Source: Pseudomonadota bacterium
Lineage (GTDB): Bacteria; Pseudomonadota; Alphaproteobacteria; Micavibrionales; UBA2020
Direction of reading: 5' to 3'
DNA: 64,000 nucleotides
Assembly (NCBI GenBank): GCA_021845905.1
Contig: JAJZVA010000002.1
Span: 140,577-204,576 of the forward strand
Part shown: one piece after another, positions 2,566 to 18,598 of the stretch
How the letters are laid out: every line of letters begins with the position of its first letter
How positions within the stretch are numbered: the first letter of the stretch is position 1
Notes under the pieces: generated by a model
Databases searched by the model: none
The model's input: only the letters and a program-made list of their open reading frames with translations
Told to the model about the DNA's origin: nothing
Translations under genes and position numbers: made by a program

Positions 2566-3009
2566 TCAAGCCGTTCTTTCAAAGTAATAAATGCAGGCGA
2601 CGCCTGACAAGACCAGAAGCCCCCCGAAAGCCGTGCCCCACGACATTTCCACCTCGCGGAAGAAAAGCCACGTGAAGAGAGCCGTGAAGAGAGGGTAGGC
2701 GATTTCAACGAGTCCCGCCACCGTCGCGTTCTTCTCTTGCATGCTGGCGAGGATGGAGAGGTTGGACAGCGCGTTGACGAGAATGATGCCGAGCACCAGT
2801 TTGGTTTCGTACCCGCCTTTCCTGATCACCTGCCAGTCGTTCGCGAGTGCGCCGTGCGCCGCCGCCCAGCCGAAATAGACGAACACCGTGCCGAAGGCCG
2901 TATACAGCATCGCCGCGGCGGGCGAGATGGTTTTCAGAAGTTGCTCGTACATGGCGTAGCTTGCGCCCCACAAGGCGGCGGCGAGCAGCGCGAAGGCGAA
3001 CCAGCCCAT
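2566..3009 (-). CDS. Half-size EamA/DMT-family membrane protein
   Basis: About 147 residues, almost entirely hydrophobic, with roughly five predicted membrane helices and a C-terminal half (VEIAYPLFTALFTWLFFRE, then GGLLVLSGVACIYYF) that matches the end of an EamA domain. Normal EamA transporters have two such domains in about 300 residues, so this is a single-domain version that would have to dimerise. It sits between fabD and fabG and shares their strand. Two starts are possible: ATG 3009, or a TTG at 3015 that overlaps the fabD stop as TTGA. The substrate is unknown, and a role linked to fatty acid synthesis is only suggested by position. Confidence 0.75.
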   Translation of the reverse strand: MGWFAFALLAAALWGASYAMYEQLLKTISPAAAMLYTAFGTVFVYFGWAAAHGALANDWQVIRKGGYETKLVLGIILVNALSNLSILASMQEKNATVAGLVEIAYPLFTALFTWLFFREVEMSWGTAFGGLLVLSGVACIYYFERTA

Positions 3010-3011
3010 TT

Positions 3012-3959
3012 TCAAAGGTCTTTCAAAAACGCTTCGATATCTTGCGGCGTGCCGACGCTTTTACCGGAAAGCTCCTTGTCGATGCGGCGGGTGAGGCCGG
3101 AGAGGACCTTGCCCGCGCCGAGCTCGACGAGTTCCGTCACGCCCTGTTCTTTCATGTAAAGCACGGATTCGCGCCAGCGCACCATGCCCGTCACCTGTTT
3201 GACGAGCAGGTCGCGGATCTGGTCGGGGCTGGTGACGAATTCAGCAGTGACGTTGGCGACCAGCGGCACGACAGGGGCTTTCACCTCGACTTTGGAAAGC
3301 GCGTCGCGCATCGCGTCCGCCGCGGGCTGCATCAAGGGGCAGTGGAACGGCGCGGAGACGGGGAGCATCACGGCGCGCTTCGCGCCTTTTTCCGTGGCGA
3401 GGGCGACGGCTTTTTCGACAGCGGCCTTGTGACCGCTGACGACGATCTGTCCGTAGGAGTTGTCGTTCGCCGCCGCGACGACTTCGGAATCGCTCGCTTC
3501 ACGCACGATGCTCGTCACGTCGTCGATTTCGAGGCCGAGGATCGCCGCCATCGCGCCGACGCCCACCGGCACGGCCTTTTGCATCGCCACCCCGCGGGTT
3601 TTGAGCAATCGCGCCGTGTCTTTCAGCTGGAACGACCCCGCGGCGGTGAGCGCTGAATATTCGCCGAGGGAGTGTCCCGCGACGCATTTGGCGCTTTTGA
3701 AAAGCTCCGGTTTTTCTTTTTCGAGGATGCGCGCCACGGCGAGGCTCACCGCCATCAGGGCAGGCTGGGTGTTTTCGGTGAGATTAAGGTCGGCCTCCGG
3801 CCCCTCGAACATGATTTTAGTCAGGTTCTGGCTCAAAGTCTCGTCGACCTCCTGAAACACCTCGCGGGCGAGCGGAAAAGCGTCCGCCAAATCTCTGCCC
3901 ATGCCGACGAACTGGCTACCCTGTCCGGGGAATACGAATGCGCGCATCTTTTTGATCAT
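3012..3959 (-). CDS. fabD: Malonyl CoA-acyl carrier protein transacylase FabD
   Basis: Transfers malonyl from CoA to ACP to feed fatty acid elongation in the cytosol. The 315-residue protein has the N-terminal FVFPGQGSQ signature, the nucleophile Ser97 in GHSLGEYSA, and the catalytic His in SAPFHCPLM near residue 206, all in the expected order; the length is normal. It is the first gene of a fabD-EamA-fabG unit. An internal ATG at 3947 (MRAFVFPGQ) could be the true start, since no clear ribosome site precedes 3959. Confidence 0.96.
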   Translation of the reverse strand: MIKKMRAFVFPGQGSQFVGMGRDLADAFPLAREVFQEVDETLSQNLTKIMFEGPEADLNLTENTQPALMAVSLAVARILEKEKPELFKSAKCVAGHSLGEYSALTAAGSFQLKDTARLLKTRGVAMQKAVPVGVGAMAAILGLEIDDVTSIVREASDSEVVAAANDNSYGQIVVSGHKAAVEKAVALATEKGAKRAVMLPVSAPFHCPLMQPAADAMRDALSKVEVKAPVVPLVANVTAEFVTSPDQIRDLLVKQVTGMVRWRESVLYMKEQGVTELVELGAGKVLSGLTRRIDKELSGKSVGTPQDIEAFLKDL

Positions 3960-10783: not shown

Positions 10784-11541
10784 CGCCAAAGCTCGAACTC
10801 AGAGGCGTTTATAAATCCTTCGGCAGCAATCATGTGCTGAACGGCGTCGATATTTCCATCGAAAAGGGCAAATCGCTGGTGGTGATCGGCGGTTCGGGCA
10901 CCGGCAAATCGGTGATGATCAAGTCCGTCCTCGGCCTGCTCAATCCCGACAAGGGTTCGATCAAGGTCGACGGCGTCGAAACGACGACGATGGATCTGAA
11001 GGAGCGCGACGCCCTGATGAAAAAGTTCGGCATGCTCTTTCAGGGCGGCGCCTTGTTCGACAGCATGAAGGTCTGGGAAAACGTCGCCTTCGGCCTCGTG
11101 CAAGGGCAGTCAATGAGCCGCAGGGAAGCGCAGCCCATCGCCATCGAGCGCTTGCGCGCCGTGGGATTGCCCGCCCGCGTGGCGGATCTTTACCCGGCGG
11201 AGCTATCGGGCGGGATGCAAAAGCGCGTCGCGCTCGCGCGCGCCGTCGCGACCAAGCCGGAGATCATCTTCTTCGACGAGCCGACCACCGGCCTCGACCC
11301 GATCATGGCCGACGTGATCAACGACCTCATCGTCGCCGCGAGCAAGGATTTGGGCGCGACCACGCTCTCCATCACCCACGACATGGCGAGCGCGCGCAAG
11401 ATCGCCGACAACATCGCCATGATCTACAAGGGCAAGATCATCTGGCACGGTCCGGCGAACGATATCGACAATTCCGGCAACCCTTACGTGGACCAGTTCA
11501 TTCGCGGGCAGGCCGACGGCCCGATTAAGATGGAAATATGA
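10780..11541 (+). CDS. mlaF: MlaF-type ABC transporter ATP-binding protein
   Basis: ATPase partner of the MlaE permease. The 253-residue protein shows Walker A GGSGTGKS near residue 37, signature LSGGMQKRVALARA near 141 and Walker B IIFFDEPT near 162, in a normal ATP-binding cassette. It starts at ATG 10780 inside the mlaE stop codon (ATGA) and ends overlapping mrcA in the same way. This tight coupling places phospholipid transport and peptidoglycan polymerisation in one transcript. Confidence 0.93.
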   Translation: MTPKLELRGVYKSFGSNHVLNGVDISIEKGKSLVVIGGSGTGKSVMIKSVLGLLNPDKGSIKVDGVETTTMDLKERDALMKKFGMLFQGGALFDSMKVWENVAFGLVQGQSMSRREAQPIAIERLRAVGLPARVADLYPAELSGGMQKRVALARAVATKPEIIFFDEPTTGLDPIMADVINDLIVAASKDLGATTLSITHDMASARKIADNIAMIYKGKIIWHGPANDIDNSGNPYVDQFIRGQADGPIKMEI

Positions 11542-14012
11542 CGACGCATAAAAAACCCGCCGCGCAAAAGCAGCCGCCCGCCGACAGTCAGGGATTTTTC
11601 GCCCGCGCGCTGATGGCGCTTTTTTCGCTTGGCGTCGTCGGGGTGATCTTCGGCCTCGCCGCGGGCGGCGCGGTCCTGCATTATTTCAGCCGCAACCTGC
11701 CGAACGTCAACGATCTTGCCCATTACGAGCCGCCGATCGTGACGCGCGCGTATGCTTCCGACGGGCGCCTGCTGGCCTCGTTTTCGACGCAGAACCGCGT
11801 CTACGTGCCCTTCGACGCCATTCCGCCGGTGGTGGTGCACGCGTTTTTGTCCGCCGAGGACAAGGATTTCTACCACCACGCAGGCATCGACATCCCCGGC
11901 ATCATCCGCGCCGCGCTGTTCGACATCACCCACCCGCACCACCGCAAGATGGGCGGCTCGACCATCACCCAGCAGGTGGCGAAAAACTTTTTCCTCAGCG
12001 ACAAGGTGAGCTACGTGCGCAAGATCAAGGAGGCGATCTTGTCCTTCCGCATCGAGCAGGCCTACAGCAAGGACCAGATCCTCGAGCTCTATCTCAATGA
12101 AATCTATCTCGGTCAGGGCACGTATGGGATTGCGGCTGCCGCGCTGAAATATTTCGACAAGCCGCTCGACGAGCTGACGGTGCCCGAGGCGGCGTTCCTC
12201 GGCGCGCTGCCCAAAGCGCCCAACAACTACAATCCTGAAACGCATTACGCCGCCGCCGTCGCGCGCCGCAACTGGGTCTTGAACGAAATGCGCAAGAACG
12301 GCTATATCACCCGCGCGCAGGAAGACGCCGCCGTCGAGAAGCCTATCACGCTGATCAAGCCCGGCGACAAGCAATACGTCCACTATCCCTATTTCGCCGA
12401 GGAAGTGCGCCGCAAGCTCGAAAGCCTTTATGGCGAGAAGGCGCTTTACGAGGGCGGCCTGCTGGTCAAGACGACGCTGGTGCCGCGTTATCAGCGCCTC
12501 GCCGTTCAGGCCCTGCGCGACGGTTTGATCGCCTACGACGAGCGCCGCGGCGGACTGCACAGCAAGCCGCTCGCCCTTCTTTCCACGACGGGCGACTGGA
12601 AGGACGCGCTCGCGCAAGTGAAACTGCCGCCGGGCGGAGATGTTTTCACGCCCGCGGTCGTTTTGAAGAGCGACGCGCACCGAGCAATCGTCGGTTTCGC
12701 CGACGGCACGGAAGGCGTCATCCCCTACGACAAGATGGAATGGGCGAAGACCCGCGGCGTGCCGCCCAAGACCGTCGACGCGCTTTTGAAGCCCGGCGAC
12801 GTCTGGCTGACCGGCAAGGCGGACGTCAAAAAAGAATATGGGCTTCCGGTGTACTGGCTCCGGCAGATCCCGAAAGTCGAGGGCGGGATGATCGTCATGG
12901 ATCCGCACACCGGCCGCATCTTCGCGCTGGTCGGCGGCTTTTCCTATGAGATGAGCCAGTTCGACCGCGCGACGCAGGCCGAGCGCCAGCCGGGCTCGAC
13001 CATCAAGCCGTTCGTTTATCTGACCGCGCTGGAAAACGGCTTCACCCCCGCGACGCTGGTGGCCGACGAGCCGTTTGAAATCAGCCAGGGCCCCGGCCTG
13101 CCCGAATGGGATCCGAAGAACTACGCCGGACATTACCTCGGCCTCGTGCCGATGCGCATCGGTCTGGAGCGCTCGCGCAACCTCATGACCATTCGCATCG
13201 CCAACGACGTCGGCATGGACAAGGTCGCGGCGACGGTCAAGAAATTCGGCGTCATGGACAACATGCCGCCGCTGCTTTCGATGTCGATCGGCGCGGGCGA
13301 CGTCACGCTGTTGCACATGGTCACCGGCTATGCCGCCTTCGCCAACGGCGGCAAGAAAGTGACGCCGACGCTCATCGACCGCGTGCAGGACCGCTACGGC
13401 AAAACGTTATATGTGCACGACACCGCGCCGTGCCCAGATTGCGGCCCGCTGATCGCCTGGCGCGGCCAGCCGACGCCGGTCATTCCCGACACGCGCGAGC
13501 AGCTTGACGATCCGCGCTACAACTACCAGATCATTTCCATGCTCGAGGGCGTGGTGCAGCGCGGCACCGGCATTCTCCTCAGCCGCATCGGTCGCCCCGT
13601 CGCCGGCAAGACCGGCACCACCAACGATTCCAAGGACACCTGGTTCATCGGCTTCACGCCCAACCTGCTGGTCGGCGTCTATGTCGGGTTCGACGAGCCG
13701 AGATCGCTGGGTCCGCGCGAGACGGGCTCGCGCGACGCCGCACCGATCGTCCGGCAGTTTCTGGTCAATGCGCTGAAGGGCGTGCCGCCGCAGCCGTTCC
13801 CCGTGCCCAACGGCATCGACCTCGTGCGCATCAACGAGATGACCGGCACGCGCGCCAAGCCCGGCGACGCCAAGACCATCATCGAGGCCTTCGTCGACGG
13901 CGACGAGCCGGGTGACGTGCCGACGATGTGGACGGGGCACGCGGTGACGCCCGTCTCCGACCTTACGCATGCGGGCGAAGGGGTCAACACCGGCCTTGGC
14001 GGACTTTATTGA
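11538..14012 (+). CDS. mrcA: Penicillin-binding protein 1A (glycosyltransferase/transpeptidase)
   Basis: Bifunctional class A PBP that polymerises and crosslinks peptidoglycan in the periplasm. The 824-residue protein has one N-terminal membrane helix (about 25-50), the glycosyltransferase motifs EDKDFYHHAGID near 104 and GGSTITQQVAKNFFL, then the OB insert region. The transpeptidase has serine SxxK in QPGSTIKPF near 485, SRN near 550 and KTGTT near 690. All catalytic motifs are intact and length is typical of PBP1A. The ATG overlaps the mlaF stop. Confidence 0.95.
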   Translation: MTTHKKPAAQKQPPADSQGFFARALMALFSLGVVGVIFGLAAGGAVLHYFSRNLPNVNDLAHYEPPIVTRAYASDGRLLASFSTQNRVYVPFDAIPPVVVHAFLSAEDKDFYHHAGIDIPGIIRAALFDITHPHHRKMGGSTITQQVAKNFFLSDKVSYVRKIKEAILSFRIEQAYSKDQILELYLNEIYLGQGTYGIAAAALKYFDKPLDELTVPEAAFLGALPKAPNNYNPETHYAAAVARRNWVLNEMRKNGYITRAQEDAAVEKPITLIKPGDKQYVHYPYFAEEVRRKLESLYGEKALYEGGLLVKTTLVPRYQRLAVQALRDGLIAYDERRGGLHSKPLALLSTTGDWKDALAQVKLPPGGDVFTPAVVLKSDAHRAIVGFADGTEGVIPYDKMEWAKTRGVPPKTVDALLKPGDVWLTGKADVKKEYGLPVYWLRQIPKVEGGMIVMDPHTGRIFALVGGFSYEMSQFDRATQAERQPGSTIKPFVYLTALENGFTPATLVADEPFEISQGPGLPEWDPKNYAGHYLGLVPMRIGLERSRNLMTIRIANDVGMDKVAATVKKFGVMDNMPPLLSMSIGAGDVTLLHMVTGYAAFANGGKKVTPTLIDRVQDRYGKTLYVHDTAPCPDCGPLIAWRGQPTPVIPDTREQLDDPRYNYQIISMLEGVVQRGTGILLSRIGRPVAGKTGTTNDSKDTWFIGFTPNLLVGVYVGFDEPRSLGPRETGSRDAAPIVRQFLVNALKGVPPQPFPVPNGIDLVRINEMTGTRAKPGDAKTIIEAFVDGDEPGDVPTMWTGHAVTPVSDLTHAGEGVNTGLGGLY

Positions 14013-14027
14013 AGAGAGAATAATCGC

Positions 14028-14354
14028 CTAGAGATCGGGAGTTTTTATCCGCTGCTTGTCCTTGTGGATGATATAGCCGGCGTTCATGACGGCGGGTGCA
14101 AGGCCTCCCGCAACAAGAGCGGCGGCTGTCGGGAGAACGGCAATGGGGCCAAGCGGCATTGTTATCACAGAGGTTGCCGCCACGGCCAGAGAAGCGGAGC
14201 ACACGCCCCATGCGCTGGAGAGCCATGCATTGTTGCTCCCCCGGTCTAATCCTCTTTTGTACAAGGCGCTATTGCCGGAACAGAAGTTGAAAGCGCCGGC
14301 GAGCGCTCCGGTCATATCATAGAAGGCATTGGATATACTTGATTTGAGTGACAT
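14028..14354 (-). CDS. Small glycine/alanine-rich membrane protein, paralogue C
   Basis: 108 residues from ATG 14354 (AGGGG upstream); the frame extends further upstream but that part is AT-rich and unlikely to be translated. The N-terminus contains GAFNFCSGNSALYKRGLDRG. The middle holds two hydrophobic Ala/Val-rich segments (about 45-90), and the end is a short charged tail (GYIIHKDKQRIKTPDL). The same layout appears in the genes at 14846-15172 and, in broken form, at 14580-14852. No known family is recognised. A membrane hairpin protein is the most direct reading; function is unknown. It converges on mrcA. Confidence 0.72.
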   Translation of the reverse strand: MSLKSSISNAFYDMTGALAGAFNFCSGNSALYKRGLDRGSNNAWLSSAWGVCSASLAVAATSVITMPLGPIAVLPTAAALVAGGLAPAVMNAGYIIHKDKQRIKTPDL

Positions 14355-14456
14355 GCGTGGCCCCTGAAAGTTTTTCAAACCTATTTCAATAATATGAAAA
14401 ATATAATGAAATGTCAAGCTCCAAGTGATACAAACGCATCGGGGTGAATGTGTTGT

Positions 14457-14483
14457 ATTGAAATTAAAGTATTTAATTTCAAT
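14457..14483. repeat. AT-rich perfect palindrome
   Basis: Arms of 12 bases, ATTGAAATTAAA (14457-14468) and TTTAATTTCAAT (14472-14483), separated by three bases (GTA). It lies between the truncated paralogue B and paralogue C, about 100 bases upstream of C. It could be an operator or the base of an RNA hairpin; the loop is too short and U-poor for a clear terminator. Confidence 0.6.
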
Positions 14484-14579
14484 TCTTTAATGAAAAACCA
14501 AAAGAGATGCGACCTTTTATCCTGCGCTTCCGTCCAGAGTAACGCGGCAAACGTCAATAAGATGAGAGAGCGGTCTTTA

Positions 14580-14852
14580 TTATTTCGGACGGATTTTTGC
14601 CGCCTGCTGCTGTTTCTCGTATTTATGCTTGCCGACGAGATAACCCGCCCTGAGACGGGCGGGTGTAAAACCGCCGGCGACGGTAAAGGCGCAGACCAGC
14701 GGAACGGCGACGGCGGCGGGCGCGGCGATGGCTATGCTGGCAGAAATGCCGATAACACAGCCAATCATATTGCCAAGGGCCATTCCGTAGCCGGAACGGG
14801 TAAGATCTTGTTTGGTTATTAGTCCGCGTTTCAGTCCATGCTTTTTCAGCGC
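14580..14852 (-). pseudogene. 5'-truncated copy of the small membrane protein family, paralogue B
   Basis: In this frame the sequence reads ALKKHGLKRG from 14852, matching ALKKYGLERG of paralogue A, then a hydrophobic middle and GGFTPARLRAGYLVGKHK at the end, matching A's FTPARLQAAYIIGQHK. The first 20 or so residues (the AFN..GN region) are missing. The reading frame instead runs straight into the 3' end of gene A in another frame, as expected if a deletion fused the two genes. A methionine at 14783 could start a 67-residue remnant, but it has no good ribosome site. Probably a decayed tandem copy; a functional short form is not excluded. Confidence 0.6.
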
Positions 14853-15172
14853 TTCACGACCAGTGCGTTCTCGTTTTCTTTCTTTTGCGCGCGCTTGTGC
14901 TGGCCGATGATGTAGGCCGCTTGCAGGCGGGCGGGCGTGAAGGCAACAACGGCGGTCGCAAGGGCAAAGGGAATGGCTAAGGCGGGCGCGACCGAAAGAG
15001 CGCCCACGGTCATTATGCCGCCGGCGCCTACAGACGTGATTCCCAGTATACCGGAAGCACCAGTACCCATTTCTCCGCGCTCCAGCCCGTACTTCTTCAG
15101 CGCGGTATTCCCCGCGGCCCAGTTGAAGGCGCCGCGGATGCTTTGGACAACGTCATATACGATAGTGGACAT
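14846..15172 (-). CDS. Small glycine/alanine-rich membrane protein, paralogue A
   Basis: 108 residues with the same plan as paralogue C: an N-terminal amphipathic part with GAFNWAAGNTALKKYGLERG, a Gly/Ala/Val-rich hydrophobic middle (about 40-80, many GxxxG-like steps), and FTPARLQAAYIIGQHK leading to a Lys/Glu-rich tail. It has no cleavable signal peptide, so it probably inserts as a hairpin. ATG 15172 is preceded by GGAGAG (15181 downward). The last codons overlap the remains of paralogue B. Function unknown; the glycine-zipper-like core suggests membrane assembly. Confidence 0.75.
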   Translation of the reverse strand: MSTIVYDVVQSIRGAFNWAAGNTALKKYGLERGEMGTGASGILGITSVGAGGIMTVGALSVAPALAIPFALATAVVAFTPARLQAAYIIGQHKRAQKKENENALVVKR

Positions 15173-15380
15173 GAATTCTCTCCTTTTATAAAAATAAACC
15201 TTGTTTGCTGTGGCAAGTCTTATGTTTCTGTATAATGATGTTTATTGATTACGTCAATAGTAATTCATAATATTTTATACATTTGAATTTATTGATGGTT
15301 TTTAACCATAACGTGCACCCGCGGCCTTTCTGCGTTGCGATTATCAGCGCCGGAAGACCTGCTTTGCGCGCGAATCGATA

Positions 15381-16103
15381 TTACTCGCCAAGCGCGGAAT
15401 TGAGGTGTTTATAATTGCCCATCTGGCGTTTTGGCGCCGGCGGGTTTTGCGCGGAATTGTTCGCGTCGGCGGGCGCCGCGGCTTCTGCGATGCGTTTGGC
15501 CGCCGCGCCTTTGAACTGTTCGGTAAGGTGCGGCATTTTTTGCAGGAATTCTTCGTAAAGCGGTGACTGGCAGATCTGTGCGGTCTGGTCGCTGACCAAT
15601 GTTTTTATTGTTTCGGAGATTTGTTTGGACAGGCCGTCTATCTTTTCGACATGGCCCTTGATCTTTTCGAGGTTCGCTTTCGTTTTAAGCGCGTTTTTTT
15701 TATCTTTGCGGGCATCTAAAAACGCGCCGCCTATGCAAGGAGCAACAAAACTTGAAGCCATGTACCCGACAAATATCGGAAGGCCGATGCCGCCCAGCCC
15801 AAAACCAAAAGCAAGGGCGATATGCACCCCGAGAGGCATGCTAGCCAGCGTAGTAGGAGCGGCAAGAAGAGTGCCTATACGTGTCATTTCTCCAGGTTCT
15901 GTGCATGTCGCCGCCTCGTTGATGGCGGTTGTATGCGCGGCGATATTGTTTCCGATCTCCGAGAATTTGAGAATTTTCTCCGCAGGGTCTTTGATGTTCA
16001 TCGCCTCGGCGACGGCCGCTTCAAAAACCGCGCCTTGCGCGATGTATGCGTCGAGCTGCTCTTGTGCCTGTTTTTCTCTTTCTTTGCGTTTTGCGTTGAA
16101 CAT
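15381..16103 (-). CDS. Orphan membrane/coiled-coil protein next to the small paralogue array
   Basis: 240 residues from ATG 16103, chosen because AGAGG lies seven bases upstream. The N-terminal 60 residues are charged and helical (KRKEREKQAQEQLDAYIAQG). Residues about 75-130 form a Gly/Ala/Leu-rich hydrophobic region (HIALAFGFGLGGIGLPIF). This is followed by a Lys-rich coiled coil (DARKDKKNALKTKANLEKI) and a Pro/Asn-rich C-terminus. The layout of hydrophobic hairpin plus basic tail resembles an enlarged version of the small neighbours at 14.0-15.2 kb, though sequence identity is not obvious. No family recognised. Confidence 0.7.
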   Translation of the reverse strand: MFNAKRKEREKQAQEQLDAYIAQGAVFEAAVAEAMNIKDPAEKILKFSEIGNNIAAHTTAINEAATCTEPGEMTRIGTLLAAPTTLASMPLGVHIALAFGFGLGGIGLPIFVGYMASSFVAPCIGGAFLDARKDKKNALKTKANLEKIKGHVEKIDGLSKQISETIKTLVSDQTAQICQSPLYEEFLQKMPHLTEQFKGAAAKRIAEAAAPADANNSAQNPPAPKRQMGNYKHLNSALGE

Positions 16104-16370
16104 GGCGTCGCCTCTCTGAATGTTAAAAAAATCCGGATATTGAATTTTCCGCATGGATTCTCCCGCGCGGTTTTAAACGTGTTGCAATATAGGATGATAT
16201 GTACTATATGTCAAATTATATTTCGGAAACTGAATGATAAACTCTAAAACCGCTTCTATCTCAAAGAATTAATATTTAACATAATATATAACCAGTACAA
16301 ATATGGCCAGTCGCGGCTCATTGGGCGGACCGGGGCTCAGGCGCGGCCTTTGGGCGTGCCGGTTCTTTAC

Positions 16371-18356
16371 TTATTCGCCCGCTGCGACGATCAGCGCGTT
16401 GAGGACTTCGCGTTTCGAAAGAAGCTCGCTCAAAATAATGCCGTTGGGCGCGCCGGGGCCGTAGACGATGTTGAAGGGGATGCCGTAGCGGCCATACGAA
16501 TTGAGATAGGCAGTGATGGCCGCGTCATGGTGCGTCCAGTCGCCCTGCATCAAGACGACGTTCGGCACCGACATCGCCGCCTGCACGTCCGCCCGGTCGA
16601 GCACGAGACGCATGTTCGCCTTGCAGGTCAGGCACCAGTCGGCGGTGATGTCGACGAAGACGGTGTCGCCCTGCGCGACGTCCTTTTTGATTTCCGCGGC
16701 GTTGAATTTTTGCCAGCCGGCGGAAAGCGTCGGCTGGGTTGCGACGGTCGTCAGCACATGGCCGAGCCAGAGCGCGGTGAGCAGCAGAACGGCGGCAAGC
16801 ACTTTTTTGAAGACCAGCATCCAGTTGCCGGGCTTGGGCATGTATTTGAAGACGCGCGGCGAAAGCGCCAGCAGCATATAAGGCGCGGCCATGCCGAGCC
16901 CCATGAAGGTGAAGACGGTGAAGATGTCGCCGGCCTGACGGGCGAGTGCGAAGCTGATCGCCGTGCCGAGGAACGGCGCCGAGCAGGGCGTGGCGAGCAG
17001 CGTGGCGAAAGCGCCTGTGAGGAAATGGCCGAGCATTGTCGGCGCGTATTCATGCCGTTTGGTAAGGTGGTGCGCGATGAAGCGCGGCAGCGGGATCTCG
17101 AAAAAGCCCCACATGTTGGCGGCGAAGAGCAGAAGAACGATGATCAGGAAGATCAGAAACCCGGGATACTGGAACTGGATGCCCCAGCCGATCGCGGCGC
17201 CGCTGTCCTTGAGCGCGACAAGCGCGCCCGCGATCACGAGGAATGAAAACACGATGCCTGCCGCCGCGGACATGAAGTTGCGGAAGATCTCCGCGCGGTG
17301 GATGCGGTGGTCTTTGCCGCCGTGGCTCAAGACCTCGAAGACCTTGATCGACAGCACCGGCAAAACGCAGGGCATGAGGTTGAGGATCAGCCCGCCGACG
17401 AAAGCGAAAAGCAGGATCATCGGGTCGAGATGCGCCGCCGCGCCGGAAATGATTTTTTCCATGGCGCGGTGCGCCGGATGCGCGCCGCCGAAAGTCACCG
17501 CGCGCTGGAAGGCCGCGCCGCCGCTTCGATAAGTAAGTATGACGCTGGTGCCGTCGAGCACGCCTGAAAGCGCCTTGAGGCCGCCGCCGGCGCGCAATGG
17601 TTCTTTGGCCTCCAGCCTGCGCGTGGCGGCATTGTAAGAGAAGACCGGCTTGCCGAAGCTGGCGTCGCCTTTCGTTTCGATGAAGAGGTCGGCCCCGGGC
17701 GCTGGCGCGGACGCGGCATGGCCCGCGACATGGAAGAACACGTCCTTGCCGTTCTGGTCGAGCCAGACGTTGCTGACGGAAAACGCGCCGTCGTTCGCCG
17801 TCGAGGGCACTTTTTCAAGCGCGGCGGCGAGCAGCGGCTGGCTGGCGCTCACTTGCGCCTCGCCCGCGGGAATATGAAGGTGGAGCTCTTTCTGTTCCGG
17901 CACGCAGATCGGGCCGCACACCAGCAGGCGGAGCTTGAGATCGAGATCGATGGCGTTGCCGGGATTTTCAGGCGTGAGGGTGACGGGAAAAACGACGTCA
18001 TGCGCGTAGCCGAAGTCCTGAATGCCGTAGGCGAGATACCGCGTCGGCGCGGGCCAGAGGACTTGCGCGGATTTGAGATTTTGCGAGCCCGTCCAGTCGA
18101 ACGACGGGGCAAGTCCCGTTTCTCCCGGCGTGCGCCAGTAGGTGTGCCATCCTTGCGCGAGCTTCACATCCACGCCCGCCTGAATGACTTTCAGGTTTCC
18201 GGCGCCGGTGACGGCGGCGATCAGCCGCGCGTGGGTGTGCGGCGGGCGGACACCCGTCTGCACGGGCATCCGCGCCGTCGTTGTTTGCGCCCATGCGGGT
18301 GCGGCGGCCATAAAAACAAAAAGAGCGAGCAGCGCGGCGAGAGAACGGAGCGACAT
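16371..18356 (-). CDS. DsbD/ScsB-type protein-disulfide reductase
   Basis: Moves reducing equivalents from cytosolic thioredoxin across the inner membrane to periplasmic targets. The 661-residue protein has a signal peptide (LLALFVFMAAAPAWA), a large N-terminal periplasmic domain of the ScsB type (about 25-290, with VCGPICVPEQ), an eight-helix membrane domain with the redox cysteines in NLMPCVLPVL and LLATPCSAPF, and a C-terminal thioredoxin domain with DWCLTCK near residue 572. ATG 18356 is preferred over a GTG at 18365 because GAAAGG lies eight bases before it. ScsB-like naming fits the N-terminal domain better than classical DsbD. Confidence 0.9.
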   Translation of the reverse strand: MSLRSLAALLALFVFMAAAPAWAQTTTARMPVQTGVRPPHTHARLIAAVTGAGNLKVIQAGVDVKLAQGWHTYWRTPGETGLAPSFDWTGSQNLKSAQVLWPAPTRYLAYGIQDFGYAHDVVFPVTLTPENPGNAIDLDLKLRLLVCGPICVPEQKELHLHIPAGEAQVSASQPLLAAALEKVPSTANDGAFSVSNVWLDQNGKDVFFHVAGHAASAPAPGADLFIETKGDASFGKPVFSYNAATRRLEAKEPLRAGGGLKALSGVLDGTSVILTYRSGGAAFQRAVTFGGAHPAHRAMEKIISGAAAHLDPMILLFAFVGGLILNLMPCVLPVLSIKVFEVLSHGGKDHRIHRAEIFRNFMSAAAGIVFSFLVIAGALVALKDSGAAIGWGIQFQYPGFLIFLIIVLLLFAANMWGFFEIPLPRFIAHHLTKRHEYAPTMLGHFLTGAFATLLATPCSAPFLGTAISFALARQAGDIFTVFTFMGLGMAAPYMLLALSPRVFKYMPKPGNWMLVFKKVLAAVLLLTALWLGHVLTTVATQPTLSAGWQKFNAAEIKKDVAQGDTVFVDITADWCLTCKANMRLVLDRADVQAAMSVPNVVLMQGDWTHHDAAITAYLNSYGRYGIPFNIVYGPGAPNGIILSELLSKREVLNALIVAAGE

Positions 18357-18598
18357 GGGAAACACCTTTCAACGTTGCCCCGATCATAAAGCAGATGCAG
18401 GCGGGATGGAATCGCGCATGGGAATAAAATCGCCGCGATTGGCGCAAGGCATTTCATAAATATTAAAACATCATGATTTATATACATATTAAATAGATGT
18501 TGGCTTCTTATGCCCTCTGTTTACATTCAATTTTAATAAAATCAGTATAGAATCAGTGAAGTGGGGGAACTTTTTAAAAAAATGCCCGGAGCGCGAGC

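What the first reader, a model, noticed from the sequence alone, without database searches (positions are those of the whole stretch)
14028..15172. Array of three related small membrane proteins with a broken middle copy
Genes A and C share AFN..GN..AL.K.GL.RG, an Ala/Gly hydrophobic hairpin, and a charged tail; A and B also share FTPARL.A.Y..G.HK. B has lost its first 20 residues through an apparent fusion to the end of A. Repeated duplication and decay is typical of genes under changing selection, such as toxins, immunity or envelope-modifying peptides. No known family is recognised.
Basis: partly seen in the sequence, partly recalled or inferred. Interest (0 to 1): 0.62.

Follow-up and report, generated by a model that had tools for sequence, protein, structure and literature searches.

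The report
Orphan hairpin membrane-protein gene array
Three neighbouring genes in an unnamed alphaproteobacterium are true relatives that encode a small two-helix membrane protein seen only in its close kin, and the middle copy is a broken remnant; what the protein does is unknown.

Summary
On the minus strand lie A (15172-14846, 108 aa), remnant B (about 14850-14580) and C (14354-14028, 108 aa). They are homologous well beyond composition (shuffle z 17 for A-C, 7 for A-B). B has lost its start, promoter and about 20 N-terminal residues at an out-of-frame junction on A's stop codon; its only ordinary start codon gives 67 aa without the conserved motif. A fourth copy lies elsewhere in the genome. 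Relatives occur in 3 of 18 genomes of the taxonomic family (including an independent tandem pair), and no convincing one was found in the rest of the order or in samples of the class and phylum, phage and plasmid records, or viral contigs. No Pfam, NCBIfam, PHROG, PADLOC or PDB family matches. The shared plan is an amphipathic N-terminus with FN..SGN.AL...GL.RG, an uncharged 46-59-residue Ala/Gly/Ser-rich core and a basic tail, which suggests an inner-membrane hairpin with both ends inside. The array occupies a variable slot between ponA and a dsbD-like gene, where a sister species has a methyltransferase. Most likely this is a lineage-restricted, patchily kept family of small inner-membrane proteins. 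Toxin, immunity or effector roles are neither supported nor excluded. AlphaFold failed (pLDDT 50).

The parts
14846..15172 (-). Gene A, 108 aa, intact copy: N-terminal motif GAFNWAAGNTALKKYGLERG, uncharged core, tail ending FTPARLQAAYIIGQHKRAQKKENENALVVKR
14580..14857 (-). B, 5'-truncated remnant in the -1 frame relative to A. Homology starts at about RTGREALKKHGLKRG, overlapping A's last codons and stop. The only ATG/GTG/TTG start is at 14783 (67 aa)
14028..14354 (-). Gene C, 108 aa from ATG 14354, intact divergent copy
14389..14417 (-). Promoter-like site of C: TTGACA-17-TATTAT, 34 nt before the ATG
15229..15257 (-). Promoter-like site of A: TTGACG-17-TATACA, 56 nt before the ATG, with AAGGAG near the start
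14846..14857 (-). Junction: A's stop TGA overlaps the CTG of B's ..GREALKK.. in another frame. Short shared sequence (GAAGCGCTGA) may have mediated the deletion (inference)
   Evidence: junction mechanism inferred
14013..16370 (.). Variable slot between convergent ponA (11538-14012 +) and dsbD-like gene (16371-18365 -). Contents differ between species of the genus

Best explanation
A, B and C belong to a small, lineage-restricted family of inner-membrane hairpin proteins that is gained, duplicated and lost within one alphaproteobacterial family. Inferred working model: the conserved N-terminus (amphipathic helix plus FN..SGN.AL...GL.RG) and the basic tail both stay in the cytoplasm. The Ala/Gly/Ser-rich, Pro-containing uncharged core crosses the membrane twice as a tightly packed hairpin. 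The protein acts in the producing cell, as a small accessory or regulator of the membrane or of a membrane complex, with the conserved N-terminus as the contact surface and the hairpin free to drift. A and C are separately expressed copies. B was silenced by a deletion that removed its promoter, start and N-terminus. Shown: homology, truncation, distribution, variable locus, charge layout. Inferred: membrane insertion, topology, expression, action in the producing cell.
For: Homology. Uncharged core of 46-59 residues flanked by net-positive or neutral segments on both sides in all eight confident family members. Promoter-like sites of 9-11 of 12 matches, counting the two hexamers, upstream of A, C, the C13 copy and G1b. 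Not one mobile locus: copies sit at different places (next to ponA; near groES; near aspS in G001; near pmbA in G017) without a shared partner. In the G001 tandem pair the N-terminus is conserved (dN 0.18, dS 0.59) and the rest diverged (dN 0.66, dS 0.95). No phage, plasmid or viral-contig relatives.
Against: No structure, localisation or expression data. The AlphaFold model from the three window sequences is unreliable (pLDDT 49.8, pTM 0.20). Patchy presence (3 of 18 genomes) and low GC3 (0.53-0.71 in this genome's copies against 0.85 in ponA) would also fit foreign or selfish genes. Nothing shows that the conserved motif binds anything.
Confidence: 0.5

Rival explanations
1. Holin-like or membrane-permeabilising toxin: the Ala/Gly/Ser-rich hairpin with a charged tail oligomerises and opens the membrane. 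Copies would be phage or toxin cargo under recurrent inactivation.
For: Size, two hydrophobic segments and a short basic tail resemble two-TM holins. Patchy distribution and decay of B.
Against: No holin family in Pfam or PHROGs (best hit phrog_1549, unknown function, E 0.0022 over 26 residues). No endolysin or phage genes recognised next to the array; no relatives in phage records or viral contigs.
Confidence: 0.18
2. Exported effector that inserts into another membrane, like chlamydial Inc proteins: the conserved N-terminus is the export signal and the hairpin the anchor.
For: Constant N-terminus with a fast-diverging hairpin in the G001 pair; a 40-60 residue two-lobed hydrophobic segment; orphan genes with their own promoter-like sites.
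Against: No sequence match to Inc families at a meaningful score (best E 0.31 to IncM). Whether the genome has type III or IV secretion machinery was not looked for.
Confidence: 0.1
3. Bacteriocin or microcin precursors with the N-terminal segment as leader and the Ala/Gly-rich hairpin as active peptide.
For: Composition; C39-peptidase ABC transporters exist in the genome.
Against: No clear double-glycine leader, and no transporter or immunity gene recognised beside any copy. C39-type transporters occur in 13 of 17 family genomes, including ones without these genes. The two in this genome sit in type I secretion operons with no family member nearby.
Confidence: 0.07
4. A and B are one gene: the frame break is an assembly error or a programmed -1 frameshift in the A-rich run, so a two-hairpin protein is made.
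For: B's frame is open far upstream into A and the A-rich run AAAAGAAAGAAAAC lies just before the break.
Against: A's in-frame tail (LVVKR) resembles the tails of single-hairpin relatives (C13 LAVKR, G017 VNKR). There is no classical slippery heptamer in A's frame. All other relatives have one hairpin.
Confidence: 0.07

Closest known systems
Two-TM (class II) phage holins
   Same: Small, two hydrophobic segments, charged C-terminal tail (own general knowledge; a paper on such holins turned up by search is PMC9327680, not read)
   Different: No holin family match, no lysis neighbours, longer conserved N-terminus, no phage relatives
Chlamydial Inc proteins (bilobed hydrophobic domain; abstract of PMC3048545)
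   Same: N-terminal segment, then a 40-60 residue two-lobed hydrophobic segment; lineage-specific, divergent paralogues
   Different: No sequence match; not from Chlamydiae; secretion not tested
Class II bacteriocins / microcins
   Same: Ala/Gly-rich hydrophobic composition
   Different: No double-glycine leader, exporter or immunity gene nearby
P0003-type coiled-coil/hairpin proteins at 15381-16154 (unnamed family found here)
   Same: Same locus, Ala/Gly hydrophobic hairpin, tandem arrays with decayed copies, no known family
   Different: Not homologous: hhalign probability 1.3%; 200-280 aa with long flanking helical regions

Membership tests
Phage holin (two-TM class) | Match to a holin profile | tested here: not met
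Phage holin (two-TM class) | Beside endolysin or spanin genes, or in phage genomes | tested here: not met
   array between ponA and dsbD-like gene; no phage or viral-contig relative
Phage holin (two-TM class) | Triggers lysis or loss of membrane potential | not testable with these tools
   needs expression assay
Chlamydial Inc proteins | Bilobed hydrophobic domain of about 40-60 residues | tested here: met
   uncharged core 46-59 residues with two hydropathy peaks
Chlamydial Inc proteins | Sequence family match and type III export | tested here: inconclusive
   only E 0.31 to the NCBIfam IncM model; export not testable here
Double-glycine bacteriocin/microcin | Double-glycine leader and adjacent C39 exporter or immunity gene | tested here: not met
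P0003-type hairpin family | Profile homology to the 30-member alignment | tested here: not met
   hhalign prob 1.3%; a weak composition-type HMM hit to A only
Anti-phage defence proteins | Match to a PADLOC profile | tested here: not met
   best E 0.18

The most novel reading that the evidence does not exclude
A new class of clade-specific membrane-hairpin proteins with a constant cytoplasmic or export head and a fast-changing hairpin. It would be one of two unrelated hairpin families (this one and the P0003 type) that undergo the same tandem birth-and-decay in this clade, which would point to an ongoing conflict with phages, competitors or hosts.
Probability: 0.12. Interest if true: 0.6.

Novelty: new member of a known kind. 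Interest (0 to 1): 0.3.

Why it matters
The family is absent from every library searched, so it is a real, if modest, addition to the catalogue of lineage-restricted small membrane proteins. Its interest would grow if the constant head / variable hairpin pattern and the parallel behaviour of the neighbouring P0003 family were shown to reflect conflict rather than neutral turnover.

Tried and rejected
Known family by profile (Pfam, NCBIfam, PHROGs, PADLOC, PDB sequences): nothing credible. Pfam HRG hit to C (E 0.0044, under its cut-off) and phrog_1549 hit to A (E 0.0022) cover only short stretches and are treated as composition. AlphaFold2 on A with B and C: too poor to search folds, so no fold search was run. 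Phage or plasmid origin: no hits. Homology of A/B/C with the neighbouring P0003 gene: rejected. Bacteriocin exporter linkage: rejected. RNA families and tRNA integration site: none; only short, imperfect repeats that look like chance. The single class-level hit G413 (E 1.6e-4, model columns 35-105, so without most of the N-terminal motif) was not followed and is presumed composition-driven. The weak fifth copy near pmbA (L023:2662-2970) is uncertain (z 2.4 to A, 6.8 to B, 3.5 to C). Literature searches for a precedent found nothing direct.

Full report
WHAT WAS CHECKED. The window lies in a 2.42 Mb, 26-contig alphaproteobacterial assembly (98.8% complete). Contigs of same-genus genomes match, by length and position, records titled 'Rhodospirillales bacterium palsa_926', 'Rhodospirillales bacterium nzgw523' and an 'Alphaproteobacteria bacterium' lake MAG. 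The finding concerns the minus strand, in transcription order A (15172-14846), B and C (14354-14028).

THE SIMILARITY IS REAL. A finds C at E 7.9e-12 and B at 2.2e-8 in the genome. Because the proteins are rich in Ala and Gly, I repeated the comparison against shuffles within 20-residue blocks: A-C z 17.0, A-B z 7.3, B-C z 11.1, no shuffle of 200 reaching the observed score. The alignment shows a shared N-terminal block (A)AFN..SGN.AL.K.GL.RG, an uncharged core, and a C-terminal block F.PA.L.A.Y..G.HK followed by a basic tail.

B IS A REMNANT. B's similarity begins at GREALKKHGLKRG, on top of A's last codons and stop, in the -1 frame relative to A. Reading that frame upstream through A gives no ATG, GTG or TTG until 14783. 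The only ordinary start therefore gives 67 aa beginning at the edge of the hydrophobic core. I saw no promoter-like site for B, whereas A and C each have one (TTGACG-17-TATACA and TTGACA-17-TATTAT). A's in-frame tail (LVVKR) resembles the tails of single-hairpin relatives, so A looks intact and the deletion joined A's stop to roughly the twentieth codon of B. A shared GAAGCGCTGA at the junction could have mediated it (inference). A frameshifted A-B fusion protein is possible but less likely.

DISTRIBUTION. A fourth copy lies on another contig near groES (L004:1471-1884). In the same genus, G001 has one single copy (L011:1016-1327) and one tandem pair (L022:2391-2774 and 2802-3221); another genus of the family, G017, has one (L021:5938-6303). 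So 3 of 18 genomes of the taxonomic family carry it. No match was found in the remaining genomes of the 142 searched in the order. Only one doubtful, mostly core-only hit came from 385 sampled genomes of the class, and none from 398 of the phylum other than the window's own. A limit of these two sampled searches is that at most 11 first-look candidates per genome were scored. No phage, plasmid or viral-contig relatives were found.

THE LOCUS IS VARIABLE. ponA and a dsbD-like gene are convergent neighbours in the genus. The slot between them holds an O-methyltransferase and a P0003-type gene in the sister species G002 (PBP1A 87% identical), an O-methyltransferase in G001, an ABC transporter in G003 and 11 nt in G007. 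The window's genome has the A/B/C array and a P0003-type gene, and a search with the methyltransferase protein found no match in it (that search had no positive control). Third-position GC is 0.56-0.71 in A, B and C against 0.85 in ponA.

WHAT IT PROBABLY IS. All eight confident family members have an uncharged 46-59 residue core, 38-51% Ala+Gly+Ser, with two hydropathy peaks and net positive or neutral flanks. By the positive-inside rule this suggests a membrane hairpin with both ends in the cytoplasm (inference). In the G001 pair the N-terminal 50 residues are conserved (dN 0.18, dS 0.59) while the rest has diverged (dN 0.66, dS 0.95), so the N-terminus is the more constrained part; the boundary was chosen by eye. 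The copies have no shared partner gene. My working model is a resident inner-membrane protein with a conserved cytoplasmic head; the function is unproven. AlphaFold on the three window sequences gave pLDDT 49.8 and cannot be used.

COMPARISON WITH KNOWN FAMILIES. No profile in Pfam, NCBIfam, PHROGs, PADLOC or among PDB sequences matches. Two-TM holins and chlamydial Inc proteins (PMC3048545) have a comparable layout. The holin family and context features were tested and not met; the Inc hydrophobic layout was met but sequence and export were not shown. Double-glycine bacteriocin features were tested and not met.

THE NEIGHBOUR. P0003 (15381-16154) is not homologous to A/B/C (hhalign probability 1.3%). 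It belongs to a second unnamed family of coiled-coil/hairpin proteins found in 7 of 18 family genomes, often as tandem arrays of two to four genes, including directly downstream of rpsD in two genera. Some copies lack the hairpin or are truncated. Duplication and decay of hairpin proteins is therefore a habit of this clade, not peculiar to A/B/C.

VERDICT.

Noticed in passing
window 15381-16154 (-): Member of a second unnamed family (about 200-280 aa, helical flank / hydrophobic hairpin / helical flank) with matches at 8 places in this genome and in 7 of 18 family genomes, often in tandem arrays, sometimes downstream of rpsD (L141, L151). No Pfam or NCBIfam match. It may be the more interesting family.
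   Followed up: partly
L142:2947-3339, L147:2184-2717, L140:87-317: P0003-family copies that have lost the hairpin or are truncated, i.e. decay within those arrays too.
   Followed up: partly
window 14013-16370: ponA-dsbD intergenic slot is a hotspot of gene exchange in the genus (methyltransferase, ABC transporter, hairpin genes, or almost nothing).
   Followed up: partly
L023:2662-2970: 103-aa Ala/Gly hairpin ORF directly downstream of a pmbA/tldE-type gene in the same genome; weak similarity to B and C. A family member (G017) also lies near pmbA in another genus.
   Followed up: partly
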